Assembly (NCBI RefSeq): GCF_900112865.1
Contig: NZ_FONH01000020.1
Span: 17,437 to 81,436, forward strand
Source of the DNA: Dyella marensis
GTDB lineage: Bacteria > Pseudomonadota > Gammaproteobacteria > Xanthomonadales > Rhodanobacteraceae
Reading direction: 5' to 3'
Length of the DNA: 64,000 nucleotides
Made by a program: the position numbers and the translations under genes. The notes below the pieces were generated by a model. That model was given only the letters and a program-made list of their open reading frames with translations. It was not told where the DNA came from and ran no database searches. Of the stretch, positions 9,045 to 61,370 are shown piece after piece. The first letter of the stretch is position 1. The number at the start of each line of letters is the position of its first letter.

Positions 9045-9135
9045 GTAGGTTGGGGTGAGCCACCGGCGAACCCCAACAAACCAGCTGCATAGGCACGGTG
9101 ACGTTGGGGTTCGCCGATGGCTCACCCCAACCTAC
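9045..9135. repeat. REP-type palindromic pair, copy 2
   Basis: Arms 9045-9077 and 9103-9135 with a 25-nt spacer nearly identical to that of copy 1 (CCAGCTGCATAGGCACGGTG shared). One base pair is broken: left CCACCGGC against right GCCGATGG, a C:A mismatch on this strand but G-U on the other. Similarity to copy 1 continues a few tens of bases outside both arms. It lies between convergent genes and could serve as a bidirectional hairpin downstream of both. Confidence 0.9.
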
Positions 9136-9142
9136 AGAGGTG

Positions 9143-11008
9143 TCAGAGTCCCCAGTGTGTTGTCACGTAGTTGTCGAACTTCCCCATATCCAGACTCCCC
9201 CATCCCGCACAGGGCGTCCAGCCACTATTGGCGCAAGCGGCGCCATTCCACGTCCCGCCACCAAGGTTGTGCAGTGGACTCACATCAGTGTCGAAGTTCG
9301 CGTACATCTGCGGCGTCGGTAGGCCAAGCCGGTTGCCATGTGCCGATTCGATACGCGCAAACAGCCCGGTAAAGATGCTCGATGCCAGCTCTGAGCCATT
9401 GAACAGATGCTGCTCGGCGCCGTTGACGATGATGCGCGCGCCGCTGGTGGCCGGCAGCATCAGGGTCGAATCCCAGTTGCTTGGCACGTTCTTGTACGCA
9501 TCGAACGCGATGTCGGGGACCAGTCGTCCGGTGACAGGCGGCTGCGGGCTGCCGGGCAGGGGATTGCCGAGTGACGTCTGCCAGAACGGTATCGGTGCAT
9601 AGGTGCTGGTTCCGGTGGGGTCGAGCCAGTAGTTGACGTAGGTTCGGCCACCGGGGTCGGCGGAGTACGACACCTCGTACCACGGCGATTCGCTCGACCA
9701 GTGGCTGGCGCCGTCGTCAGTCACCTGGGAGCCGCCCACGGCGACGACGTTGGGCGAGGTCGATGGTGCGGTCGGCGGTGCGAAGGGAACGAACATTTGC
9801 ATATCCATGAAGACGGCGCTGCCGGCCGTGGCCATCACCACCTGCCCTTGCGCGCGGGACGCCAGGAAGATCGTGTCGTCGATCGCCTGCTGGCCAGTGA
9901 GGTGGGAGCTTTCTTCGTCCAGCGACCACGAGGTCTGGATGAGCTTTACCGCGTCGTCGGCCACGGCGCGGTTGTATGTGGCCGTGACATCCGCCTGGGT
10001 CGGCTTCGTACCGGTGGGCGCCATGGCGTAGAACACCATCTGCTCCAGTTGCCCGGCGGTGGCCGCGATGACCTGGCTCTCGTCCTGCGCGCCACCAGCG
10101 CCTAAGCTGCCATGACCGACTTTCACCACGCTGGTGTTCACTCGCGGCATGGACTCGCGGTCGGTGAAGGTATTCAAGTCGGCAATGGTCTGCGTCATGT
10201 CGCCGGCGGCGATGATGCCTACCGACGTGGCATGGCCGGTGCTCACCGCATCCGCGCCATAGATGGTGCTGTAGGCGAGCGGGTTGCGGCCAAAGCTGGA
10301 GATCGGTCCGTCCGGTGGCGGCTGGTAGTCCGCATGATGGTTGCTCGGTGCCGACAGGAAATCCGTCAGTCCTAGCACTCCGGTGACAATGCCGCCCAGT
10401 GCCGCCGGTACCTGTGCCGGTCCGACATTGACCATGAACTGCGGTGGGTAGTAGTCGCTGTCGGTCAACGTCGCCATGGTCAGGTTGAACGCGGAAGACA
10501 CGCCGCCTGCCGTGCCGTCGGCCGTGATGGTCAGATGATTGGAGGCCACTTCGATGCCGCTGAAACCGTGCTGGCTGAGATACGCGACGACGGCAGCTAC
10601 TTGTTCGCTCGTGGGTGCGTAATCGCGCATGAAGGTGTCGCGGTCCAGGTACTGCGCATAGACGGGCGAGCCCGGTTGCGTTACGTCGTGCAGATAGGAT
10701 TCGAGCTGTGTCCGGTTGCGCAACTGCAGGCCGAGGGTGATGTGCACCGGTGCGTTGGCGGCCAGGGCGGCAACGTTGGCTGGATCGAAGCATCGCAAAT
10801 ACGTGAAGTTCAATTCGTATTTCGCGCCGCAATGGGTGGTGGGCGGTGCATTGATGACCGCCTGCGTGGCGGTGGTCGACCATGTGGTATCGGCCCATGA
10901 CGGCGCCGTTCCAAGCAGCGCGACGCACGCCGCAACGAGCGGCAAGCCGGATCCGGGCCGGTGTATGGAATGCGGACGATGGGGAAGTGGGACAGAGCAA
11001 CGGCGCAT
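9143..11008 (-). CDS. S53 (sedolisin/kumamolisin) family protein, probably catalytically inactive
   Basis: 621 residues. A signal peptide (about 21-39), an activation prodomain (VHITLGLQLRNRTQLESYLH through the NLTMATL region, about 88-181), then the S53 fold with AVGGS, RLVPDIAFDA and a C-terminal part like the calcium-site region. S53 enzymes are acid serine peptidases using Glu, Asp and Ser with an oxyanion Asp. In my alignment all are replaced: the ExxxD pair is A318 and E322 (AGQLE), the oxyanion GD is A395-G396, and the GTS serine motif reads G538-S539-E540. This suggests a secreted pseudopeptidase, unless Ser539 is used. Family sure; loss of activity inferred from an alignment by eye. 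Confidence 0.88.
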   Translation of the reverse strand: MRRCSVPLPHRPHSIHRPGSGLPLVAACVALLGTAPSWADTTWSTTATQAVINAPPTTHCGAKYELNFTYLRCFDPANVAALAANAPVHITLGLQLRNRTQLESYLHDVTQPGSPVYAQYLDRDTFMRDYAPTSEQVAAVVAYLSQHGFSGIEVASNHLTITADGTAGGVSSAFNLTMATLTDSDYYPPQFMVNVGPAQVPAALGGIVTGVLGLTDFLSAPSNHHADYQPPPDGPISSFGRNPLAYSTIYGADAVSTGHATSVGIIAAGDMTQTIADLNTFTDRESMPRVNTSVVKVGHGSLGAGGAQDESQVIAATAGQLEQMVFYAMAPTGTKPTQADVTATYNRAVADDAVKLIQTSWSLDEESSHLTGQQAIDDTIFLASRAQGQVVMATAGSAVFMDMQMFVPFAPPTAPSTSPNVVAVGGSQVTDDGASHWSSESPWYEVSYSADPGGRTYVNYWLDPTGTSTYAPIPFWQTSLGNPLPGSPQPPVTGRLVPDIAFDAYKNVPSNWDSTLMLPATSGARIIVNGAEQHLFNGSELASSIFTGLFARIESAHGNRLGLPTPQMYANFDTDVSPLHNLGGGTWNGAACANSGWTPCAGWGSLDMGKFDNYVTTHWGL

Positions 11009-14486: not shown

Positions 14487-15944
14487 ATGCAGAAATCCGC
14501 CCTCATCCGTACCCCCTGGGCAGCAGGCCTGGGCCTGGCCCTTGCCGGCTGTGCGGTGGGCCCGGACTACCGCGAGCCAGCCCCGGCGGCACCCGTGGCG
14601 TGGAGCGCGCCGCTTCCGCATGGCGGTGCCGTGGGTTCGCTCGATGCATGGTGGGCGCAATTCGACGATCCGCTGGTGGCCAGGCTGGTGGCGATGGCCG
14701 AGGCCGACAGTCCGTCGCTGGCCAAAGCCTGGGCGAATATCGAGAAGGCTCGCGCCACCCTGGTGTCCGCCAGGGCTGACGGCCTGCCGACCCTGACGGG
14801 CGGCAGTTCGATCACCCGCAGCAAGCAGCAGATCCTGCCGGGGAGCGAAACCACCAGCAGCACACGCAGCGGCGAGCTGGACGCGTCCTGGGAGATCGAC
14901 TTGTTCGGCAAGGTGCGCCGCACTACCGAGGCCGCCCGCGCGCTCGTCGGCGCGCGCGTGAGCGACTGGCACGATGCGCGGGTCTCGCTGGCGGCGGAAG
15001 TCGCCGATACCTATGTCGAATACCGCGGCTGCGCGCAATTGGCCGATGCGTACGAGCGCGAACTGCAGTCGGAGACGCAAACAGAGCAGGCCACGGCCAG
15101 CCTGGTCCGCGCCGGTTTCAAGTCCCCGTCGGACGGCGCCCTTGCACGCGCGGGCACCGCCGACACCCGATCCACTCTTGTTTCACAGCGCGGTCAATGC
15201 GAGCTGCTGGTCAAATCGCTGGTAAACCTCACGGGATCCGATGAGGCCCAGTTGCGCGCATTGTTGGTCATGGGCGATGGGCACCTGCCGCAGCCGGCAA
15301 TGCTGGCGGTAGAGAGTGTGCCCGCGCAGGTGCTGCGCCAGCGCCCCGATCTCGCCTCGCTGGAGCGGCAAGTGGCAGCCGCCAGCGCGGATATCGGGGT
15401 CGCCCAGGCCGATCTTTATCCCAGTCTTTCGCTGTCCGGTTCCATTTCGGTGTCGGCCAGCAACAGCACCCGTCCGGCGACGGGCTGGTCGCTCGGGCCC
15501 TCGCTGTCCATCCCGATCTTCAATGGCGGCTCGCGCCGCGCGGCGGTGAAAAGCGCTTATGCGAGTTACGCCGTGGCGCTCGCCGATTATCGGCAAGGCG
15601 TGCGCGATGCGGTGAAGGAAGTCGAGCAGGCCCTGGTCAATCTCGACAGCACGGACCGTCGCGCCGCCGACGCCGCCACGGCCGACGACGAATACCGCCG
15701 CTATTTCCTGGCCACGGAAAAGAGCTGGCGGGCAGGGCGCGAGACCCTGCTCACGCTGGAGGAGGCGCGGCGCTCGGCGCTGTCGGCCGAAGTCCAGCGC
15801 ATCACGCTGCAGCGCGATCGCGTCGCGTACTGGATCGCGCTGTACAAGGCGCTCGGCGGCGGATGGGCGCCGGACCGCCCTGCGCAACCTCCGACGGCGG
15901 CGCTGCCGGCGTCACCGATCAACCACCCGCGGAGTGCGTCTTGA
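14487..15944 (+). CDS. RND efflux outer-membrane factor lipoprotein (NodT/OprM type)
   Basis: 485 residues from the ATG at 14487; a GTG at 14481 is also possible. The signal peptide ends in a lipobox, LAGC, so the mature protein is a lipoprotein, as in OprM. TolC-like helical repeats follow, with SWEIDLFGKVRR and LRQRPDLASLERQVAAASAD typical of the family. It forms the outer-membrane channel for the adaptor and pump encoded next. Its stop overlaps the adaptor start. Confidence 0.94.
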   Translation: MQKSALIRTPWAAGLGLALAGCAVGPDYREPAPAAPVAWSAPLPHGGAVGSLDAWWAQFDDPLVARLVAMAEADSPSLAKAWANIEKARATLVSARADGLPTLTGGSSITRSKQQILPGSETTSSTRSGELDASWEIDLFGKVRRTTEAARALVGARVSDWHDARVSLAAEVADTYVEYRGCAQLADAYERELQSETQTEQATASLVRAGFKSPSDGALARAGTADTRSTLVSQRGQCELLVKSLVNLTGSDEAQLRALLVMGDGHLPQPAMLAVESVPAQVLRQRPDLASLERQVAAASADIGVAQADLYPSLSLSGSISVSASNSTRPATGWSLGPSLSIPIFNGGSRRAAVKSAYASYAVALADYRQGVRDAVKEVEQALVNLDSTDRRAADAATADDEYRRYFLATEKSWRAGRETLLTLEEARRSALSAEVQRITLQRDRVAYWIALYKALGGGWAPDRPAQPPTAALPASPINHPRSAS

Positions 15945-17062
15945 ATCGCAAGTCTCTTATGGCCGCCATCGTCGCGATCGTTGCCGCGGTTGCCGGCGTG
16001 GGCATCTGGCGCGGGGCGCACGGGCGCGCCGATGTCACTTCAGGCGGGGATGCGACGCGCGCCTTGACCGTGGAGATCGTCGCACCGGAGCTCCGCACCT
16101 GGCCGGGCACCGAGCAAGCGAGCGGGCCTGTCACCGCCTGGCAGGAGGTGATCGTCAGCCCGGAAACCGGCGGGCTGCGCATCGCGGATCTGCAGGTGGA
16201 TGTCGGTGCGCGCGTCAAGCGCGGCCAGCTGCTGGCCAGCCTGGCGGATGACAGCCTGCGCACGGACCTGCACAAGCAGGAAGCTCTGCTCGCCCAGGCC
16301 AACGCTTCGCTCGAACAGGCCGTCTCCAACCTCCGGCGTGCCCAGATGGTGGGCGACAGCGGCGGGCTGTCGCCGCAACAGTTAGAGGAATACCGGATCA
16401 ACGAAGCCACCGCCCGCGCCTCCATGCGTTCGGCGAAGGCCGATGTGGACAGTGTCCAGCTCAAGCTGCGGCAGTCCCGCGTCGTGGCGCCCGACGACGG
16501 CATCGTCTCGTCCAAGTCGGCCGTGCTCGGCAATGTGGTCAGCGCCGGCGCGGAGATGTTCCGCCTGATCCGCCAGGGCCGGCTGGAGTGGCGTCCGGAA
16601 GTGGATGCCCGCCAGTTGAACGCGATCCATGTCGGCCAGCTGGCCGATGTGATGCTGCCGTCCGGGCAGCACGTGCAAGGCCGGATCCGCGAAATCGGCC
16701 CGGCGCTCAGCACGGACACCGGCCGCGCCACGATCTATGTCAGCCTGCCCGCGGACAGCGCCGCGCGCCAGGGCATGTTTGCCAATGGCGCCATCGAGTA
16801 CGAATCGCGCGCTGCGACGACCTTGCCGCAGTCGGCCGTGGTGCCGCGCGATGGCCGTTCCTATGTCTACATGGTCGATGCGAACGGCCGGGTCAGCAGC
16901 CGTGCCGTCGATACCGGCCGCCGCTCGGGCGACCGCATCGAAATCCTCACCGCGATGGACAAGGGCGCGCGTGTCGTCGCCAGCGGCGGCGCGTTTCTGT
17001 CGGAAGACGCGATCGTGGACGTCGTACCGGCCACGCGAGATAAGGCGAGGAGTGCGCCGTGA
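15941..17062 (+). CDS. RND efflux periplasmic adaptor (membrane fusion protein)
   Basis: 373 residues from a TTG at 15941, overlapping the previous stop as TTGA with GGAG upstream; the ATG at 15959 is the alternative. N-terminal anchor (MAAIVAIVAAVAGVGIW), lipoyl halves around VIVSPETGGLRIADLQVDVG and VVAPDDGIVSSKSAVLGNVV, a helical hairpin with LAQANASLEQAVSNL, then beta-barrel and membrane-proximal domains. No lipobox is seen. It bridges the inner-membrane pump and the outer-membrane channel. The three-gene operon overlaps at both junctions. Confidence 0.93.
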   Translation: MNRKSLMAAIVAIVAAVAGVGIWRGAHGRADVTSGGDATRALTVEIVAPELRTWPGTEQASGPVTAWQEVIVSPETGGLRIADLQVDVGARVKRGQLLASLADDSLRTDLHKQEALLAQANASLEQAVSNLRRAQMVGDSGGLSPQQLEEYRINEATARASMRSAKADVDSVQLKLRQSRVVAPDDGIVSSKSAVLGNVVSAGAEMFRLIRQGRLEWRPEVDARQLNAIHVGQLADVMLPSGQHVQGRIREIGPALSTDTGRATIYVSLPADSAARQGMFANGAIEYESRAATTLPQSAVVPRDGRSYVYMVDANGRVSSRAVDTGRRSGDRIEILTAMDKGARVVASGGAFLSEDAIVDVVPATRDKARSAP

Positions 17063-53021: not shown

Positions 53022-53834
53022 ATGAACGAATCGATCCGGCAGGCGGCGCAGCGCATCATCGCCAGCATGCAATCCATGTACGGCGGCGAGTTCACTTACC
53101 TGCCCGTCGACGAAGTGCAGTTCCGGCATCTGGATCTGCGTGCGTATCGCGAATTCCAGGCACGGCACGAAGCGAAGGCATTCCGGCATCTGTGCGATGT
53201 CGAGATCGCCGAGGTTTCCCATTCGCCCACCACGATACTGGCGCGCACCTATATCCGCAGCATGGTCTCCGCGCACGGCGCGGTGGCGGCGGACTACTAC
53301 CAGGTCAGGCCGCGCATGGATCGCCTGTGGCGCATGCTGCTGCGCGGACTGGGCAACGGGCGCTGGATCGACGCGCCGCGGTTCTTCTTGCGTACGCTGA
53401 AGACTAGGCACTGTGTCGGCTACACCACGGAGCTTGGCAACGGGCACTTCATCGTCACCAGCAATGCGCAAGCGGCAAGCAAGATCGGATCGCCGCCCAC
53501 CATCGACAACGAATTCCATCCGTACGGCACGCTCACGCAGGTGGTGATGGACCGGCACATGGTGCGCCTGCGCAGCCGCCTGGAAGCCGAGCCGCAGTTG
53601 CGCGTCAGGATGCTGGGCAGCGCGGAAGAACTGGAGGCGCAACGCCGCCGGATGAAGCAGCAGAAGGATGCCTATCGCGCCTCGGTCGACTGGGTGTCGA
53701 AAGAAGAGCTGGCGAACATGGGCAGCGATCCGCGCGTGGCGGCCGCGATCTACGAGGAAGTACGCCGGCAGCTGGGCGTCACCGCCGAAGGCCCCGGATC
53801 GAGACCTCCGGCGCAGGAAACGCTCAGCGCGTAG
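53022..53834 (+). CDS. Hypothetical protein
   Basis: 270 residues from the ATG at 53022, GAGGGG upstream. Soluble. The middle part (GYTTELGNGHFIVTSNAQAA, HPYGTLTQVVMDRHMVRLRS) looks like a compact alpha/beta domain and the C-terminal third is charged helix (EELEAQRRRMKQQKDAYRAS). No family recognised. Its last 11 nt overlap the end of the convergent prolyl oligopeptidase gene. Confidence 0.68.
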   Translation: MNESIRQAAQRIIASMQSMYGGEFTYLPVDEVQFRHLDLRAYREFQARHEAKAFRHLCDVEIAEVSHSPTTILARTYIRSMVSAHGAVAADYYQVRPRMDRLWRMLLRGLGNGRWIDAPRFFLRTLKTRHCVGYTTELGNGHFIVTSNAQAASKIGSPPTIDNEFHPYGTLTQVVMDRHMVRLRSRLEAEPQLRVRMLGSAEELEAQRRRMKQQKDAYRASVDWVSKEELANMGSDPRVAAAIYEEVRRQLGVTAEGPGSRPPAQETLSA

Positions 53835-56040
53835 GCAGCTGAGCGTCGAGGAACGCGTAGATATCGGCGAACTCGGTCGCTTCCGCACCGAGCGACACCT
53901 GGATGCCATGCCCCCCGTTGGCATTGGTGCGGATCCAGACCGGCTTGCCGCTGGTGTTGGAAGCGCGCAGCTTCGCGGCGAACTTGCCGCTCTCCCAAGG
54001 CGCGACGCGGCTGTCGTTGAGGCCTACGTCCAGCATCACCGATGGATAGGCGGTCTTCGGCTTGAGGTTCTGGTACGGATCCATGGCCAGGATAAAGGGG
54101 AAATCCGCGGCCTTGCGCGGATCGCCCATCTCGCCGACCTGGTTGGCGCCGTTGGGCGCCTGCATCAGGCGCACCGGGTTGAGCATGGCGACACGGACTA
54201 TCGCCGCGCCGAACGCCTTGGGGTAGTTGGCCAGCGCGCCGCCGATCAGCAAGCCGCCAGCGCTGCCGGAAATGAGGCCGGTGCGTTCGGGGCGGCTGTA
54301 GCCGAGCTTGCTCAGCGCTTCCACGCTGGCGATGAAATCCTCCACGCCCTTGTGCTTGTTCGGTCCCTTGCCGGCCTGGTGCCAGGCCTCGCCCTTCTCG
54401 CCGCCGCCGCGCACGTGCGCATAGGCAAAGATGTTGCCGTGCTTGACCCATTCGAGCCGGATCGGATTGAACACCGGCACCTGCGACAAGCCGTAGCTGC
54501 CGTAACCCCACAGGATGGCGCGATGGTTGCCGTCGAGCACGGCGTCCTTGCGGTGCAGGACGGTCAGCGGCACGCGCGTGCCGTCCTGGCTGGTCACTTC
54601 GGTCTCGCTGATCTGGATCATGCTGTAGTCGGCCGGGCTGGTCTGGTCCTGGCCGAGCGTGTGCATGGACCGGTCCTTGCTGTCGTAGCGCCAGGCCTTG
54701 GCCGGCGTGGTCCAGCCGCGCAAGGCCAGCAGGAAGCCATCCTCGTCGTTGTCGGCATGGAACAGCGAGGCGGCGCCGGTCAGTGGCATCGAGACGCTAT
54801 CGATCTTGCCGCTGCGGTAATCGATGCGGCGGACGCTGTCGATGCCGTTCCGGGTCACCTTGACGTACAGGGCATCGCGCGCGGTGGCGACTTTCTGCGT
54901 ATCGAACAGGCTGAGGCCGACGATGATCTCGTCGTCTTCCAGCGGCAGGATCGAGCGCGCCTGCGCCAGCGACGCATCCGGTTTCGAGAGATCGATGGCG
55001 AGCACCTCGCCGTTGGAATGTTTGCGGGCGGAGACGAGGTAAAGCATGTCGCCATGGATGGCCGCCTCTTCCACCTTGTCGTCCAGTTCGGCGATGCAAC
55101 GCCAGCTCACGCCCGGCTTGATCGCCTCGGCCTGCGGCGCGACGCAATAGCGCGTTTCCGGCTGCGCGCCTGTCGCCGCGGCGATGGCCCAGCGCGATCC
55201 GGCGGGGAAGTCGATTTGCGGGAAGCGATTGGAGGGAATCGCGAACGAGGCATTGACGCCTTCGCCGGTGCCGGCGCGCAGCAGGGTCGGATCCTGCGCC
55301 ACGGGCGTGCCGAGCCGATGGAAGCGCAGGCGCATGTCCTGGATCGGATCGCCATCCGTGCGCTGGTCTTCAGGTGCCATCTGTGTATACGCGAAGCCGC
55401 TGCTGTCGGGCAGCCAGTCGGCGCCGAATTCGCCCCACACCGGCTCGACCGCATCGCCGGTGGATTTGCCGGTCTGCACATCGAACACTTCCAGGCGCGT
55501 AACTTCGGCGCCGCCGCGATCCGTATTGACGGCCACCTTGCTGCCATCGGGCGAGAGCGCGAACAGCGTGATCGAGGCGTGGCCGCCTTCGGCCAGCGTG
55601 GCCGGATCGAGCAGAACGCGCTCCTTGCCGTCGGCTTCGCGCACCATCAGGGTGCCGGTGCCCTGGCCCTCCTGGCGGATGAAGAACAGCCGGCCACCGG
55701 CATAGCGCTGCGCGCGATAGACCACTTCGTTGCCGCTGGTCTTGCCCAGCGTTTCCTGCCAGGCCTTCAGCGTCGGCAGCGCATCGAGCTTGGCGCGCGT
55801 GTAATCGCCCTGTGCCACCAGCCACTTCTGAAACTCGGCATTCTTCTCGCCTTCCATCCAGCGATACGGGTCGCTCAGGCTGTTGCCGAAGACGTGGTCG
55901 ACCACGTCGACGCGACGCGCGGGCGGCGGTCCGTCGGTCTGCGCGGCGAAGATGGCCGGTGTGCTCAGCGCGGCGGCGCAAGCGATGGCGGCGAAGCGAA
56001 GCGAAACAGGCAGGCGGCGCGAAGCGGAACGACGGCTCAT
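53824..56040 (-). CDS. Secreted prolyl oligopeptidase (S9A)
   Basis: 738 residues. Signal peptide (FAAIACAAALSTPAIFAA), N-terminal DPYRWMEGEKNAEFQKWLVAQ, a seven-bladed propeller and a hydrolase domain with catalytic S593 in GLISGSAGGLLIGG and His in NGGHGIQ. The family cleaves after proline in short peptides (about 30 residues or less) that enter through the propeller. It is divergent from the lanthipeptide precursor with a 523-nt gap. A POP, FlaP, removes the leader of the class III lanthipeptide flavipeptin, so a leader-peptidase role here is a reasonable but untested idea. Confidence 0.93.
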   Translation of the reverse strand: MSRRSASRRLPVSLRFAAIACAAALSTPAIFAAQTDGPPPARRVDVVDHVFGNSLSDPYRWMEGEKNAEFQKWLVAQGDYTRAKLDALPTLKAWQETLGKTSGNEVVYRAQRYAGGRLFFIRQEGQGTGTLMVREADGKERVLLDPATLAEGGHASITLFALSPDGSKVAVNTDRGGAEVTRLEVFDVQTGKSTGDAVEPVWGEFGADWLPDSSGFAYTQMAPEDQRTDGDPIQDMRLRFHRLGTPVAQDPTLLRAGTGEGVNASFAIPSNRFPQIDFPAGSRWAIAAATGAQPETRYCVAPQAEAIKPGVSWRCIAELDDKVEEAAIHGDMLYLVSARKHSNGEVLAIDLSKPDASLAQARSILPLEDDEIIVGLSLFDTQKVATARDALYVKVTRNGIDSVRRIDYRSGKIDSVSMPLTGAASLFHADNDEDGFLLALRGWTTPAKAWRYDSKDRSMHTLGQDQTSPADYSMIQISETEVTSQDGTRVPLTVLHRKDAVLDGNHRAILWGYGSYGLSQVPVFNPIRLEWVKHGNIFAYAHVRGGGEKGEAWHQAGKGPNKHKGVEDFIASVEALSKLGYSRPERTGLISGSAGGLLIGGALANYPKAFGAAIVRVAMLNPVRLMQAPNGANQVGEMGDPRKAADFPFILAMDPYQNLKPKTAYPSVMLDVGLNDSRVAPWESGKFAAKLRASNTSGKPVWIRTNANGGHGIQVSLGAEATEFADIYAFLDAQLPTR

Positions 56041-56563: not shown

Positions 56564-56752
56564 ATGCAGATCGATCACATCGTGGAAGGCTGGCTGAAGG
56601 GCTCCGACAACGTGGACGGCTACGCCAATCCGGCGGGCTCGCTGTACACCGAAGGCCAGGTGGCGACCATCGCCGCCGTGACCAGCCCCGAAATCGCGCT
56701 GGATACCCGCTGCAGCGGCTGCACGGCTTCGCGCCCCGGCTACTGCTGTTGA
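56564..56752 (+). CDS. Lanthipeptide precursor peptide (LanA-like)
   Basis: 62 residues, AAGGAG 8 nt before the ATG. The N-terminal leader (MQIDHIVEGWLKGSDNVDGY) is acidic; the C-terminal part contains Cys at 50, 53, 61 and 62 among Thr and Ser (RCSGCTASRPGYCC), the usual layout of a lanthipeptide core: Ser/Thr are dehydrated and bonded to Cys. No double-glycine cleavage site precedes the core, although NPAGSLY and TEGQ occur at 22-32. P42 is the only proline between the leader and the Cys cluster. It recalls small DUF6229 proteins near LanM genes, from memory only. First gene of the precursor-LanM-exporter unit. Confidence 0.82.
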   Translation: MQIDHIVEGWLKGSDNVDGYANPAGSLYTEGQVATIAAVTSPEIALDTRCSGCTASRPGYCC

Positions 56753-56761
56753 TGTGAATCG

Positions 56762-56790
56762 CCGCCGCCGTGGCCACGCCGCGGCGGCGG
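56762..56790 (+). promoter_or_regulatory. 13-bp hairpin between precursor and LanM genes
   Basis: CCGCCGCCG (56762) pairs with CGGCGGCGG (56782-56790); inside, T-G wobble and GGC/GCC close a CAC triloop. It starts 10 nt after the precursor stop and has no T run after it. In lanthipeptide operons a hairpin in this place commonly acts as partial terminator or mRNA stabiliser so that precursor exceeds enzyme. It argues against translation of LanM from the GTG inside it. Confidence 0.7.
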
Positions 56791-56817
56791 ACGATCTTCT
56801 CCAATCTTTCTTGCCGG

Positions 56818-59697
56818 ATGTCGAGCATGGGCGACGCGCCGTCGAACGATACGTTCCTGGGAATCATCGATTACCTGACCGCCGATGCCAGGCAGTCGCT
56901 CGCCGACAGCATCTGCACCTTGCCGGGACTCGGCGCCGGCGAAAGCGCGATCCTGGCGCGCGAAGCGCAACAGGCGCTGCGCGACAACGCCGAGCGCAAG
57001 CTCAATCGCATCCTGCTGCTGGAGCTGCACGCGGCCAAGCTGTCCGGCCAGCTCAGTGCAGCCGACGAGAGCGGCAAGTTCGCGCAGTTTCTCCAGCTGG
57101 CCACGCAGGACGCGTTCAAGGACACGCTGCGGCGCCGCTATCCGGTGCTGGAGGCGCGGCTGCAACGCGCGCTCGGCCAGCAGAGCAAGGCCATCGTGGA
57201 TCTGGCCCGGCGCATCGTCGCCGACCGCGATGCGCTCGCTGCCTTGTTGAACCGTCCCGCCGGCGACCTGTGCGGCGCGAGCCTTGGCCGGGGCGACGTG
57301 CACGATGGCGGCCAGTCGGTCGCGCAATTGACATTCGAAGGCGGCAAGGTGATGTACAAGCCGCGTTCGCTGCGCGTCGACCAGGCGCTGGAAAGTTTCC
57401 TGCATGATCTCTTTCAGGGAGCGGCTGACCGCATCCGCGTGCCCGCCGCGCTCGACCGCGGCGCCTATGGCTGGACCGCCTTCGTCGAGCATCGCTACTG
57501 CGAAAACCAGGACGAACTGAAAACCTTCTACCGCAACATCGGCCACTGGCTCGCCGTGCTGCGCCTGCTCGGCGGCACCGACGTGCATCACGAAAACCTG
57601 ATCGCCTGCGGCCCGGTGCCCTGCGTGGTCGACGTGGAAAGCCTGTTCGTGCCCGAGCCGCCGCCGCAGGCCTCCGAGCTGGGGCAGGCGGTAGACCTGG
57701 CCGACGCGATGATCCGCTCGTCCGTGTTGCGCACGGGCCTGGTGCCGTTCCGCGCACCGGCGCTGGGCATGGACGGCGTGGACATCTCGGCGATCGGCGC
57801 GCTGCCCGGGCAGCAGCCGAAGATCCGCGTGCCGGAGATCGTCAACCACGGCACCAGCGAGGCGCGCGTCGGCCTGGTCAGCATCGACCTCGACATGGCC
57901 AGGAACCATCCGTGCGAGAGCCCGGACATCTCGCGCTACTGGCCCGACATCGTCGCCGGCTTCCAGCAGCTCACCGGCCGTTTCGCCGCGCTGCATCGCG
58001 ACGGCGCGCTGGCACCGAAGCTGTCCGTATTCCTGGGCTGCCGTATCCGGCAGATCCTGCGGCCGACGCAGATCTACGTCGAGGTGATGCGCATGCTGTG
58101 GCATCCGGCCTCGCTGCACGACGAGCCCGCCGCGATCGAACGTGCACGCGACCTGCTGGAAAAGAACTCGGCCGCCTCCCTGGTCGCGCCGAAGGAAGCC
58201 GCAGCGATCGCCGCCGAGATCGACGACATGCGCTACGGCGACGTGCCGGTGTTCGCCAACGAACTGGATCGGGTGCAGCTCGACGAAATCTTCCAGGCCT
58301 GGCAGGCGATGCGGCTGGACCTGGAAGAGCTGACCATCCGCGGCGCGCTGGTGACGGCGCATCTGAACACGCGCCTCAACGACGACAAGCGCGTGCCCTA
58401 CGACCTGCGTCCGCGCGATCCCAGCGCGCAGGACCTGGATCGCCGCCGGCGCGCCATGGCGGCGTTGACCGTGCAGGAGCTGCTCGAATTGTCGGTGCGC
58501 GGCAACGACGGCACGGTCACCTGGATCAGCCCGATCCTCGGCCGCGCCGGCTGGGCCATGCGCAGCCTGCAGCCGAATCTCTATGTCGGGCTGAGCGGCG
58601 TGGCCGTCACGCTGGCCGCCTACCAGCGCGAGATGCGCGCGGGTCGCGCCGACGAAGTGGCCGGTGTGGCGGAGGCGCTGGACGGCGTGCTCAAGGTGTT
58701 GCGCAGCACGGAGCGGGTGCGCCCGGTCGAAGCCGTCGGCGGCTTTATCGGCGTGGGTTCGCAGATTCTCTCCTGGCTCACGCTGCATGCGTTCCGGCCA
58801 CAGGCCGATTTCCTCGCCGTGGCGGCGCAGCGCGCCGAGGCGATGGAGCAGCGCGGGTTCGGCGAGGAGCGCAACTTCGACATCCTCGAAGGCGTGGCCG
58901 GCGCGATCGTGCCGCTGTTGCAGCTTGCCGATGCCACCGGCGAAGCGCGCTGGCTAGCGCTGGCGGCGCAGGCCGCGCAACGCCTCGAACAGGCCGCCAT
59001 CGTCGATGCACGCGGCGCGCGCTGGCCCGCGGCGGTATACGACGAGCCGCTGGGCGGTTTCGCGCACGGCTCCAGCGGCATCGGCTGGGTGCTGACCCGG
59101 CTGGGCCTGAGCGCGGCCGGCAGCGCCGAGGATCGCCGGCGCTGGCTGGCGCTGGCCGAGCGCGCCTTCGATTTCGAGGAATCGCTGTACCTGCCGGAGT
59201 TCGGCAACTGGCTGGACGTGCGCAAGCCGGACAGCCGCGAGTTTCCCAACACCTGGTGCCACGGCAGCGTCGGCATCGGCCTGGCCGCCTGCGATCTCTA
59301 TGCGCGCACCGGTGGCGAGCGCCACCTGGATACGCTGCGCCGCGCGGTGCATGCAGCGCGGCGTGGCGGTTGGGGCTACAGCCATACGCTGTGCCATGGC
59401 GACCTGAGCATGTGGGAGCTGCTGCTGCGTGCGAGCAAGCTGGTGCCGGAACTGTTGCCGCCGGAGGCGATGCCGGGCAGCGCGGTGATCCTGTCCAGCA
59501 TCGAGGAGCATGGCATCGTCGGCGGCCTGGCCCGGGATGCGTTCACGCCCGGGCTGATGAGCGGCATTTCCGGCTCGATCCACCAGCTGCTGCGCATGCA
59601 TCCGCAATGCGATATCCCCTCGCCGCTGCTGCTGGAATGCCGCCTGGGCGAATATGTGCGCAACCCGGCGTTCGAACGCGAACTGCTGAGTGCCTGA
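56818..59697 (+). CDS. lanM: Class II lanthipeptide synthetase LanM
   Basis: 959 residues from the ATG at 56818; ATG 56827 and GTG 56770 are alternatives. N-terminal dehydratase (DUF4135) with MYKPRSLRVD (K181) and HHENLI...VVDVESLF (D272, E274), which phosphorylates and eliminates Ser/Thr. C-terminal LanC-like cyclase with zinc ligands C814 (NTWCHGSVGIG) and C859-H860 (LCHGDLS), plus FAHGSSGIGW. All the catalytic groups I can check are present, so it should install thioether rings in the precursor encoded upstream. The exporter gene starts 17 nt after the stop. Confidence 0.94.
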   Translation: MSSMGDAPSNDTFLGIIDYLTADARQSLADSICTLPGLGAGESAILAREAQQALRDNAERKLNRILLLELHAAKLSGQLSAADESGKFAQFLQLATQDAFKDTLRRRYPVLEARLQRALGQQSKAIVDLARRIVADRDALAALLNRPAGDLCGASLGRGDVHDGGQSVAQLTFEGGKVMYKPRSLRVDQALESFLHDLFQGAADRIRVPAALDRGAYGWTAFVEHRYCENQDELKTFYRNIGHWLAVLRLLGGTDVHHENLIACGPVPCVVDVESLFVPEPPPQASELGQAVDLADAMIRSSVLRTGLVPFRAPALGMDGVDISAIGALPGQQPKIRVPEIVNHGTSEARVGLVSIDLDMARNHPCESPDISRYWPDIVAGFQQLTGRFAALHRDGALAPKLSVFLGCRIRQILRPTQIYVEVMRMLWHPASLHDEPAAIERARDLLEKNSAASLVAPKEAAAIAAEIDDMRYGDVPVFANELDRVQLDEIFQAWQAMRLDLEELTIRGALVTAHLNTRLNDDKRVPYDLRPRDPSAQDLDRRRRAMAALTVQELLELSVRGNDGTVTWISPILGRAGWAMRSLQPNLYVGLSGVAVTLAAYQREMRAGRADEVAGVAEALDGVLKVLRSTERVRPVEAVGGFIGVGSQILSWLTLHAFRPQADFLAVAAQRAEAMEQRGFGEERNFDILEGVAGAIVPLLQLADATGEARWLALAAQAAQRLEQAAIVDARGARWPAAVYDEPLGGFAHGSSGIGWVLTRLGLSAAGSAEDRRRWLALAERAFDFEESLYLPEFGNWLDVRKPDSREFPNTWCHGSVGIGLAACDLYARTGGERHLDTLRRAVHAARRGGWGYSHTLCHGDLSMWELLLRASKLVPELLPPEAMPGSAVILSSIEEHGIVGGLARDAFTPGLMSGISGSIHQLLRMHPQCDIPSPLLLECRLGEYVRNPAFERELLSA

Positions 59698-59714
59698 GCG
59701 GGGTGGCACCGGCC

Positions 59715-61370
59715 ATGATCCTGCAGCGCTTCCTCCGCCAGCACTATCGCCCGCTCGCCGGCGCGGCGCTGCTGTCCTGTGCCAGCGCCGGCTGCACGGT
59801 GGCCTTGCTATCGCATATCAACCGGTTGGCATCGCAAGGCCTGCATGGCGGCATTGCGCATCCGCTGCTCGCGGGCATCGGCTGGCTGTTGGCGCTGTTG
59901 ATGACCAATGCCTTGTCGCAGGTGTTGCTGGCGCAATTGGGTGGCGGCCTGGTGGCGCAGTTGCGCACCGAGTTGTCGCGCCGCTTCATCGACCTGGAAT
60001 ACGAGAAGCTGGCCGACCAGAAGCACACCGTGTTCGGTTCGCTGATCGACGATGTCGCCAACATCGCCCCGCTGGCCCTGGTGGCGCCGCTGCTGGCCTA
60101 CAACCTGCTGTTGGCGGTGCTCTATGCCGGCTACCTCGCCACGGTGTCGCCGATGCTGCTGGGCATGCTCGGCGGGTTCCTGGCCGCAAGCCTCGCCGCC
60201 TCGCTGCTGCTGGCGCGGGTGATGCGCGGCAAGCTCGACGAACTGCGCCGCGCCAACGAAAAAGTGTTCGAGTACTTCCGCTTCATCAGCGACGGCAAGA
60301 AGGAGATGACGCTGAATGAGGCGCGCGCCACGCATTTCACCCACGCACTGATGAATCCGGCGATCCAGCGCGCGCGCAGCCTGATGGTGCGCGCGCACGC
60401 AGGGTTGGGGCTCAACGAGGCGTGGTCGATGACTGTGCTGTACGGCTCGATCTTCCTGATCGTCTACCTCGGTTATGCGGCGCTGGGACTGACCCAGGAC
60501 ACCATCATCCGCTTCGTCATCGGCGCGGTGTTCCTCGGTGGACCGGTGGGCTTCCTGGTCAGCGCGGGGCGGCAGGTGGCGGTGGGTGCGGCGAGCCTGC
60601 GGCATCTGGAGCGGGTGGGCTTGGATCCTGGCGGCGCCGTGGATGACGCGCCATCGCCTGCGCATGGTTCCCGTGCGCTGGACGATTGGCGCGAGATCCG
60701 CCTGGAAGGCGTGTGCTACCGCTATCCCGGCAGTACGGCGGCGCGGCCGACGGTCGGTCCCATCGACCTGGCGTTCGAACGCGGCGAGATGGTGTTCATC
60801 GTCGGCGGCAACGGCAGCGGCAAGTCGACCCTGCTGCTCCTGCTCAGCTCGCTGTTAACGCCCGAGCAGGGCTGCGTCAGCATCGATGGCATGGCGGTAA
60901 ATAGCGATCTGCGTGCCTATCGCGATCGCTTCACCGGCGTGTTCGGCGATTTCTTCCTGTTCCCACACGTGCTGGATGCGGCCGGCCGGCCGCTGTCGGA
61001 TGCGCGCATCGAGCAACTGCTCGACGTGCTCGACCTGGGCGAGCAGGTGCAGACGCACGACGGCGAGTTGTCCCGGCTGGCCCTGTCCACCGGCCAGCGC
61101 AAGCGGGTAGCCCTGCTGCAATGCTATGCGGAGGACCGCGACATCTTCTTCTTCGACGAGTGGGCCGCGGACCAGGACGTGCATTTCCGCGACTACTTCT
61201 ATCGCAGCCTGCTGCCCGCGCTGAAGGCTGCCGGCAAGACGGTGATCGCGATCAGCCATGACGACCGCTACTTCCACCTGGCGGACCGGGTGATCGCGCT
61301 GGACCTGGGCCAGGTGGTGTCGGATACGCGGCCGGCGCCGGTGCCCCTGCGGTCCAGGACTGCGATCTAG
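59715..61370 (+). CDS. ABC exporter of the cyclic-peptide type (TMD-NBD fusion)
   Basis: 551 residues from the ATG at 59715. Six TM helices in the first 300 residues, then an ATPase domain with Walker A at 364-371 (GGNGSGKS), signature LSTGQRKRV and Walker B FFFDEW. The family (PvdE/SyrD-like, cyclic peptide export) exports modified peptides but has no C39 peptidase domain, which LanT exporters usually have at the N-terminus. So it should export the modified precursor and not cut its leader. Confidence 0.9.
   Translation: MILQRFLRQHYRPLAGAALLSCASAGCTVALLSHINRLASQGLHGGIAHPLLAGIGWLLALLMTNALSQVLLAQLGGGLVAQLRTELSRRFIDLEYEKLADQKHTVFGSLIDDVANIAPLALVAPLLAYNLLLAVLYAGYLATVSPMLLGMLGGFLAASLAASLLLARVMRGKLDELRRANEKVFEYFRFISDGKKEMTLNEARATHFTHALMNPAIQRARSLMVRAHAGLGLNEAWSMTVLYGSIFLIVYLGYAALGLTQDTIIRFVIGAVFLGGPVGFLVSAGRQVAVGAASLRHLERVGLDPGGAVDDAPSPAHGSRALDDWREIRLEGVCYRYPGSTAARPTVGPIDLAFERGEMVFIVGGNGSGKSTLLLLLSSLLTPEQGCVSIDGMAVNSDLRAYRDRFTGVFGDFFLFPHVLDAAGRPLSDARIEQLLDVLDLGEQVQTHDGELSRLALSTGQRKRVALLQCYAEDRDIFFFDEWAADQDVHFRDYFYRSLLPALKAAGKTVIAISHDDRYFHLADRVIALDLGQVVSDTRPAPVPLRSRTAI

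What the first reader, a model, noticed from the sequence alone, without database searches (positions are those of the whole stretch)
56564..61370. Compact class II lanthipeptide locus with an exporter that lacks its leader peptidase
Seen: a 62-residue precursor with a C-terminal Cys cluster (C50, C53, C61, C62), a LanM with an intact zinc site (C814, C859, H860) and an ABC exporter with no C39 domain. Known: most class II loci use a LanT with C39 peptidase that cuts after a double glycine, and this precursor has no such site. Inference: the modified precursor is exported whole or cut by another protease, a divergence from the textbook class II route. The core ends in Cys-Cys, an uncommon ring pattern. 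Product and ring count are unpredicted here.
Basis: partly seen in the sequence, partly recalled or inferred. Interest (0 to 1): 0.82.

Follow-up and report, generated by a model that had tools for sequence, protein, structure and literature searches.

The report
Conserved four-ring lanthipeptide with borrowed exporter
Three neighbouring genes encode a small peptide, an enzyme predicted to tie it into sulphur-bridged rings, and a pump without a leader-cutting part; the end of the peptide that would become the product is nearly unchanged in distant bacteria, so it likely has one fixed job.

Summary
In detail: a 62-aa precursor (56564-56752), a LanM with its zinc site (56818-59697) and an ABC exporter without C39 (59715-61370). 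The precursor is Pfam DUF6229, already shown to be a lanthipeptide family (rhodanocin, PMC9576775; Lysobacter, PMC11451712). The missing leader peptidase is not peculiar to this locus: no C39 was found within 27 kb of 61 DUF6229 sites in 42 related genomes, and about a third of lanthipeptide clusters lack a protease (PMC8960859). What is new here: (1) a core CSxC[TS][AG]Sx4CC shared by 118 distinct precursor ends, with four invariant Cys and four conserved Ser/Thr, predicting one ring more than rhodanocin; (2) its CTASRP form occurs in Rhodanobacteraceae and Actinobacteria on LanM clades whose union is rejected, with different leaders and exporters; (3) in Rhodanobacteraceae all 14 CTASRP loci, and none of 40 other DUF6229 loci, carry this exporter, at least three of whose five next relatives stand beside nonribosomal peptide genes. 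Likely mechanism: four rings by LanM, export to the periplasm, trimming by an unlinked protease. Rings, export and protease are untested. Verdict: new variant of a known family, moderately interesting.

The parts
56564..56752 (+). lanA: 62-aa DUF6229 precursor peptide
   Evidence: PF19740 71.8 bits, cut-off 25; translation; LanM adjacent in 54 of 54 DUF6229 loci
56627..56638 (+). leader motif NPAG (residues 22-25); PAG is kept even in the otherwise different actinobacterial leaders; likely for enzyme recognition
   Evidence: alignments, sequences
56705..56749 (+). core region T48-C62 (TRCSGCTASRPGYCC): donors T48, S51, T54, S56; Cys 50, 53, 61, 62
   Evidence: position counts over 118 distinct type-A ends; N-terminal boundary of the product unknown
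56818..59697 (+). lanM: class II lanthipeptide synthetase, 959 aa (start codon ATG 56818 chosen here)
   Evidence: TIGR03897 556.4 bits, DUF4135 and LANC_like; LicM2 6st5 E 2.3e-56
59257..59259 (+). LanM C814, zinc ligand by motif
   Evidence: motif WCHG
59392..59397 (+). LanM C859-H860, zinc ligands by motif
   Evidence: motif LCHG
59715..61370 (+). ABC exporter, 551 aa, fused membrane and ATPase domains, no C39; like cyclic-peptide exporters
   Evidence: ABC_tran; best NCBIfam PRK10522 357.9 bits and TIGR01194 272.0 bits, both below cut-off; present in 14 of 14 CTASRP loci
60804..60827 (+). Walker A GGNGSGKS of the exporter

Best explanation
The locus encodes a DUF6229 precursor whose C-terminal core is predicted to be tied by the adjacent LanM into a four-ring lanthipeptide, which the adjacent C39-less ABC exporter likely carries into the periplasm, where a protease encoded elsewhere would remove the leader. 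Shown by sequence: the three genes, the LanM zinc motifs, the missing C39, the conserved core. Inferred: rings T48-C53, C50-S56 and T54 to C61 or C62, copied from the NMR ring pattern of rhodanocin, whose T6, C8, C11, T12, S14 fall on T48, C50, C53, T54, S56; and a fourth ring between S51 and the other terminal Cys, a pair that rhodanocin-like precursors lack. Inferred: the exporter is kin to exporters of cyclic nonribosomal peptides and takes ringed peptide. Least certain: where and by what the leader is cut.
For: A DUF6229 precursor was shown to be a LanM substrate with solved rings (PMC9576775 sections 9, 15, 16). LanM adjacent in 54 of 54 DUF6229 loci of the family, own locus included, in 16 of 16 stretches from the neighbouring family and in 9 of 9 actinobacterial loci. 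Of 118 distinct type-A ends: S/T at -2 in 115, S+1, S/T+4 and S+6 in 118, Cys 0, +3, +11, +12 in 118; of the other core positions only +2 is often Ser (84), the rest hold Ser/Thr in 18 or fewer. CC ends go with Ser/Thr between the first two Cys in 131 of 131, single-Cys (rhodanocin-like) ends in 1 of 11. Exporter beside the locus in 14 of 14 CTASRP loci and 0 of 40 others; at E<=1e-80 only 3 of 17 genomes carry it elsewhere. Of five relatives of the exporter, three have NRPS modules or a thioesterase-carrier gene beside them.
Against: No experiment on this core. The +2 Ser (84 of 118; Gly in the window) could compete with +1, and a Thr at -10 (65 of 118; T40 here) may also be modified. The CC/Ser covariation rests on one single-Cys kind of peptide, and 120 of the 196 sequences came from a search seeded with the CTASRP core, so the counts are biased towards it. 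Two type-A cores in the neighbouring family (L109, CSSCSASGGGxCC) have no such exporter in the stretch, so core and exporter are not tied everywhere. The exporter falls short of both curated cyclic-peptide exporter cut-offs. Neither protease nor cut site was found.
Confidence: 0.6

Rival explanations
1. Three rings only, as in rhodanocin: one of the two terminal Cys stays free or forms a disulfide, S51 stays a serine or a dehydroalanine.
For: The solved relative has three rings and one uncyclised Dhb (PMC9576775 section 15); LanM enzymes can leave residues untouched (LanII-2E in section 9).
Against: S51 and both terminal Cys are invariant in 118 of 118 type-A ends; in the paper all Cys of the modified class II peptides except LanII-2B were in rings (section 9).
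Confidence: 0.25
2. A C39 transporter encoded elsewhere in the genome cuts and exports the peptide, and the local ABC protein serves self-protection.
For: Three C39 ORFs in the own genome, two of ABC-transporter length (open frames 735 and 801 aa); C39 in 41 of 42 DUF6229 genomes.
Against: No GG; the GS and AG pairs lie 22 or more residues before T48, and those at 24-26 lack the hydrophobic -4/-7/-12 positions (the GS at 13-14 has two of three); nearest C39 to any of 61 sites is 27,972 bp; LahT150 did not cut rhodanocin.
Confidence: 0.12
3. The S9 prolyl oligopeptidase next door (53824-56040, -) is the leader peptidase.
For: Adjacent in the window, L044 and L047; an N-terminal stretch that reads like a signal peptide; a prolyl oligopeptidase is cited for class III lanthipeptide maturation (reference title in PMC8960859).
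Against: A close homologue (E<=1e-150) is in only 3 of the 14 CTASRP genomes and in 20 of the 219 others.
Confidence: 0.06
4. The ringed precursor is exported whole and works with its leader on.
For: No peptidase gene shared by the 14 Rhodanobacteraceae CTASRP loci nor among the genes shared by the 9 actinobacterial loci.
Against: The leaders diverge strongly while the core stays, as expected of a part that is discarded; unclustered proteases are common.
Confidence: 0.1

Closest known systems
Rhodanocin (LanII of Dyella sp. 333MFSha, DUF6229; PMC9576775)
   Same: DUF6229 precursor and LanM; spacing T-x-C-x-x-C-T-x-S of the first rings; LahT150 (C39) did not cut it
   Different: Rhodanocin has three core Cys, the last at +15 of the first, and a Dhb at +10; the window has Cys-Cys at +11/+12, Ser at +1 and Tyr at +10. 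Its letters were not seen by me; of 11 rhodanocin-like ends, 10 have no Ser/Thr between the first two Cys. None of the five loci that I call rhodanocin-like (L078, L080, L081, L083, L084) has the window's exporter in its stretch.
DUF6229 class II lanthipeptides of Lysobacter (PMC11451712, passages)
   Same: Same precursor family; class II clusters; authors note six precursor families with apparently different ring topologies
   Different: Genome mining only; their Figure S3 was not seen, so whether the type-A core is among their six families is unknown to me
YojI / PvdE-type cyclic peptide exporters (PRK10522, TIGR01194)
   Same: Best-matching named exporter families; similarity over nearly the whole length
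   Different: Below both curated cut-offs (357.9 vs 604; 272.0 vs 286.2 bits); here beside a lanM gene
LanT transporters with C39 peptidase (class II textbook route)
   Same: ABC exporter encoded next to lanM
   Different: No C39 domain and no double-glycine site near the core

Membership tests
Class II lanthipeptide cluster | LanM synthetase with DUF4135 dehydratase and LanC-like cyclase domains | tested here: met
   TIGR03897 556.4 bits over cut-off 304; PF13575 and PF05147
Class II lanthipeptide cluster | Zinc ligands Cys, Cys-His in the cyclase | tested here: met
   C814, C859, H860 by motif
Class II lanthipeptide cluster | (Methyl)lanthionine bridges in the product | not testable with these tools
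   needs mass spectrometry or NMR
DUF6229 lanthipeptide precursors | Match to PF19740 over the curated cut-off | tested here: met
   71.8 bits, cut-off 25
Rhodanocins | T-x-C-x-x-C-T-x-S spacing of the ring residues | tested here: met
   T48, C50, C53, T54, S56 against positions 6, 8, 11, 12, 14
Rhodanocins | Last ring closed by a Cys 15 residues after the first core Cys, with Thr (Dhb) at +10 | tested here: not met
   Cys at +11 and +12, Tyr at +10
LanT with C39 peptidase | N-terminal Peptidase_C39 domain | tested here: not met
TIGR01194 cyclic peptide exporter / PRK10522 YojI | Score over the curated cut-off | tested here: not met
   272.0 of 286.2 and 357.9 of 604 bits
Cyclic-peptide exporter (function) | Exports a cyclised peptide | not testable with these tools
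   three of five related exporters stand beside NRPS or thioesterase-carrier genes, which is a lead and not a test

The most novel reading that the evidence does not exclude
A single four-ring lanthipeptide core, [ST]xCSxC[TS][AG]Sx4CC, is a fixed pharmacophore kept in Pseudomonadota, Myxococcota and Actinomycetota on deeply separate leader, LanM and exporter chassis; in Rhodanobacteraceae it is delivered, leader still attached, by an exporter recruited from nonribosomal cyclic peptide pathways.
Probability: 0.25. Interest if true: 0.75.

Novelty: new variant of a known kind. Interest (0 to 1): 0.5.

Why it matters
The precursor family is known to give an anti-Klebsiella lanthipeptide (rhodanocin, MIC 126 uM with a likely non-native end, PMC9576775). 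A core that stays nearly letter for letter while leader, synthetase and exporter change around it points to one conserved target or structure, and a four-ring prediction can be tested by a single co-expression. It also gives 14 natural cases in which a pump related to exporters beside nonribosomal peptide genes appears to serve a ribosomal peptide, and frames leader removal in this whole family as an open question.

Tried and rejected
Rejected: S9 peptidase as the dedicated protease. Rejected: C39 cut at NPAG or the next residue (-4/-7/-12 are N/G/S or P/Y/D). Rejected: recent transfer of the CTASRP core between phyla: the invariant Ser51 codon is AGY in 14 of 14 Rhodanobacteraceae loci and TCG in 9 of 9 actinobacterial loci, and holding the 23 LanM together is rejected (p-AU 7e-68, quick tree). 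Not decided: retention from a common ancestor or convergence.

Led nowhere: the string CTASRP in papers (0 hits); promoter and terminator scan (0 promoters; 3 terminator-like sites against 2.1 expected); Rfam (0); a third homologue search with a rhodanocin-like precursor (5 hits). L108 (Curvibacter) gave no LanM and was dropped. L063 (LanM in two ORFs) and L081 (LanM cut by the end of its stretch) were left out of the tree; its leader labels were set by a text pattern and misplace L052 and L053, which are not used. One DUF6229 row below the cut-off (G084:C157, 22.6 bits) was left out of the 61. L091-L098 largely repeat genomes already in hand and were not counted again. No structure prediction was run.

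Full report
OBSERVATION. The three genes are where the finding puts them. The precursor (56564-56752) has Cys 50, 53, 61, 62. The LanM (56818-59697) scores 556.4 bits with TIGR03897 (cut-off 304) and keeps C814, C859, H860. The ABC protein (59715-61370) has an ATPase domain and no C39 match. The genes lie 65 and 17 bp apart on one strand. There is no GG before the core; GS (13-14, 25-26) and AG (24-25) occur 22 or more residues before T48 and do not carry the full C39 recognition set (for the set).

WHAT IT IS. The precursor belongs to Pfam DUF6229 (71.8 bits, cut-off 25). A search for that name found two papers. PMC9576775 (passages, then sections 9, 15 and 16 read) made the DUF6229 peptide of Dyella sp. 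333MFSha from a refactored cluster in E. coli: four dehydrations, three rings (T6-C11, C8-S14, T12-C23), Dhb18, activity on Klebsiella at 126 uM, named rhodanocin, with orthologues in several Rhodanobacteraceae. The authors wrote that DUF6229 holds at least two groups with different ring patterns and that the C39 protease LahT150 did not cut the peptide. PMC11451712 (passages) reports 21 of 27 unique class II precursors of Lysobacter as DUF6229. So the kind of system is known.

FAMILY SURVEY. Of 233 genomes of the family, 42 have DUF6229 (62 rows, 61 over the cut-off). I fetched 53 stretches, which with the window make 54 loci holding 61 precursors. LanM stands beside the precursor in 54 of 54 (in L063 as two ORFs, in L081 cut by the end of the stretch). 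The core CS[SG]CTASRP[GV]xCC occurs in 14 loci (window, L034-L045, L047). All 14 carry a close relative of the window's exporter (694 bits or more); in the other 40 no ORF scores above 49 bits against it. Four of the 40 (L052, L054, L059, L060) have another type of ABC exporter next to LanM, and two more (L033, L055) an ABC ORF a few kb off; L052 and L059 have no C39, and L052 scores best against MsbA. The window's exporter follows lanM on the same strand in the window, L034, L044 and L047 and runs divergently from lanA in the other ten. Apart from these genes and shadow ORFs on them, no gene family was shared by more than four of the 14. At E<=1e-80 the exporter is in 17 of 233 genomes, 14 of them at these loci (which scored the best six candidates of each genome). 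LanM and exporter distances agree (r 0.93, 0 of 2000 permutations as high), as shared descent alone would also give.

In the neighbouring family ten of the genomes sampled had DUF6229 (17 sites); all 16 fetched stretches have LanM and none has this exporter; one of them, L109, has two type-A cores of the CSAS form. That is evidence against a universal core-exporter tie.

LEADER PEPTIDASE. C39 is present somewhere in 41 of the 42 genomes, but the nearest to any of the 61 sites is 27,972 bp away (19 sites share a contig with a C39, the rest do not). At the 17 sites of the neighbouring family the nearest is about 106 kb (positions compared by eye). The own genome has three C39 ORFs. The S9 peptidase next door is present (E<=1e-150) in 3 of the 14 CTASRP genomes and in 20 of the 219 others. 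[quoted passage not shown] The lack is therefore ordinary for the family, and the protease is unknown.

THE CORE CROSSES PHYLA. A scan of one genome per species gave 18 loci: eight Rhodanobacteraceae, nine Actinomycetota (Saccharothrix, Lentzea, Kibdelosporangium, Umezawaea, one labelled Rhodococcus) and Curvibacter (no LanM seen). The nine carry the core SRCS[SA]CTASRPV[YFV]CC behind a different leader, a LanM at 690-740 bits to ours, and an ABC exporter with only 53-66 bits to ours; two of the nine exporters were scanned, without C39 and best against MsbA-type models. All nine share a BTAD regulator upstream and an FAD-linked BBE oxidase downstream (9 of 9 by clustering; representatives named). 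In a LanM tree of 61 rows (quick, rooted at the midpoint) the 14 and the 9 are each one clade (100) on opposite sides of the deepest branch; forcing them together is rejected (p-AU 7e-68). Core codons differ (Ser51 AGY in 14 of 14 against TCG in 9 of 9). So the core was not passed on recently; it was kept from an old ancestor or arrived at twice, and either way is under strong selection.

A profile search gave 817 proteins at E<=0.1; the 120 listed were used. Names given there include Luteimonas, Actinosynnema, Streptomyces, Polymorphospora, Corallococcus, Archangium (type-A ends seen for one or more of each). With the other sequences that makes 196, or 177 distinct ends; 142 have C..C[TS][AG]S, 35 do not, and 118 have the full type-A form. 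There S/T at -2 is in 115 of 118, Ser+1, Ser/Thr+4, Ser+6 and all four Cys in 118 of 118; +2 is Ser in 84, +5 is Ala or Gly, the remaining positions vary; further out a Thr at -10 is in 65. Ser/Thr between the first two Cys accompanies a CC end in 131 of 131 and a single-Cys end in 1 of 11. The single-Cys set is one kind of peptide, and the search was seeded with CTASRP, so the p value printed there is not to be trusted as independent evidence.

MECHANISM. Rhodanocin gives three rings of the same spacing; the added Ser+1 and added terminal Cys would give a fourth. This is a prediction. For export, the nearest named families are YojI and the cyclic peptide exporters, but below their cut-offs. 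Five further relatives of the exporter (3 in the family; 2 in the neighbouring family at E<=1e-40) were fetched. One or more neighbours of four were scanned: NRPS modules beside L126 and L129, a thioesterase with carrier domain beside L127; for L125 only a beta-lactamase-fold neighbour was scanned, not its large ORF; L128 was not scanned but has ORFs of the same lengths (2651 and 1812 aa) as L129. That such exporters act on cyclised peptides in the cytoplasmic membrane is general knowledge (recalled). Hence the reading: ringed precursor out to the periplasm, then trimming by an unlinked protease.

NOVELTY. The searches for CTASRP, rhodanocin, DUF6229 and YojI with lanthipeptide listed no paper that I found to describe this core or pairing; PMC9410377 (passages) lists, in a table, a Lysobacter class II cluster with yojI as key gene, so an exporter of that name beside a class II cluster has been listed before. 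Supplements and most subscription papers were not searched.

Noticed in passing
window 53824-56040 (-): S9 prolyl oligopeptidase-like gene, with an N-terminus that reads like a signal peptide, divergent from the lan genes; adjacent to them only in the own genus (window, L044, L047).
   Followed up: yes
L099-L107, about 9100-9900 and 14800-16300 (regulator at 8111-8839 in L103): Actinobacterial type-A loci share a BTAD (SARP-like) regulator and a BBE FAD-linked oxidase, which might add a further modification to the peptide.
   Followed up: partly
L104 against L105: The record named Rhodococcus rhodnii NRRL B-16535 carries a LanM nearly identical to that of Kibdelosporangium aridum (branch lengths 0.016 and 0.010); the strain label may be wrong.
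   Followed up: no
L063:9132-12058: LanM split into two ORFs of 478 and 497 aa beside a DUF6229 precursor.
   Followed up: no
L078, L080, L081, L083, L084: Rhodanocin-like loci hold one or two precursors at a shared chromosomal site; in L080 four upstream genes match PseudoU_synth_1, PRAI, PALP and Carboxyl_trans, with homologues at the other sites.
   Followed up: partly
L125:2708-6090 and L126:1480-4862: Relatives of the exporter (551 aa) stand next to a 482-aa ORF, beta-lactamase-fold in L125, and in L126 next to NRPS modules.
   Followed up: partly
G000:C9:26094, C30:113176, C24:173603: Three C39 ORFs in the own genome (open frames 735, 801, 243 aa), none on the contig of the lan locus.
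   Followed up: partly
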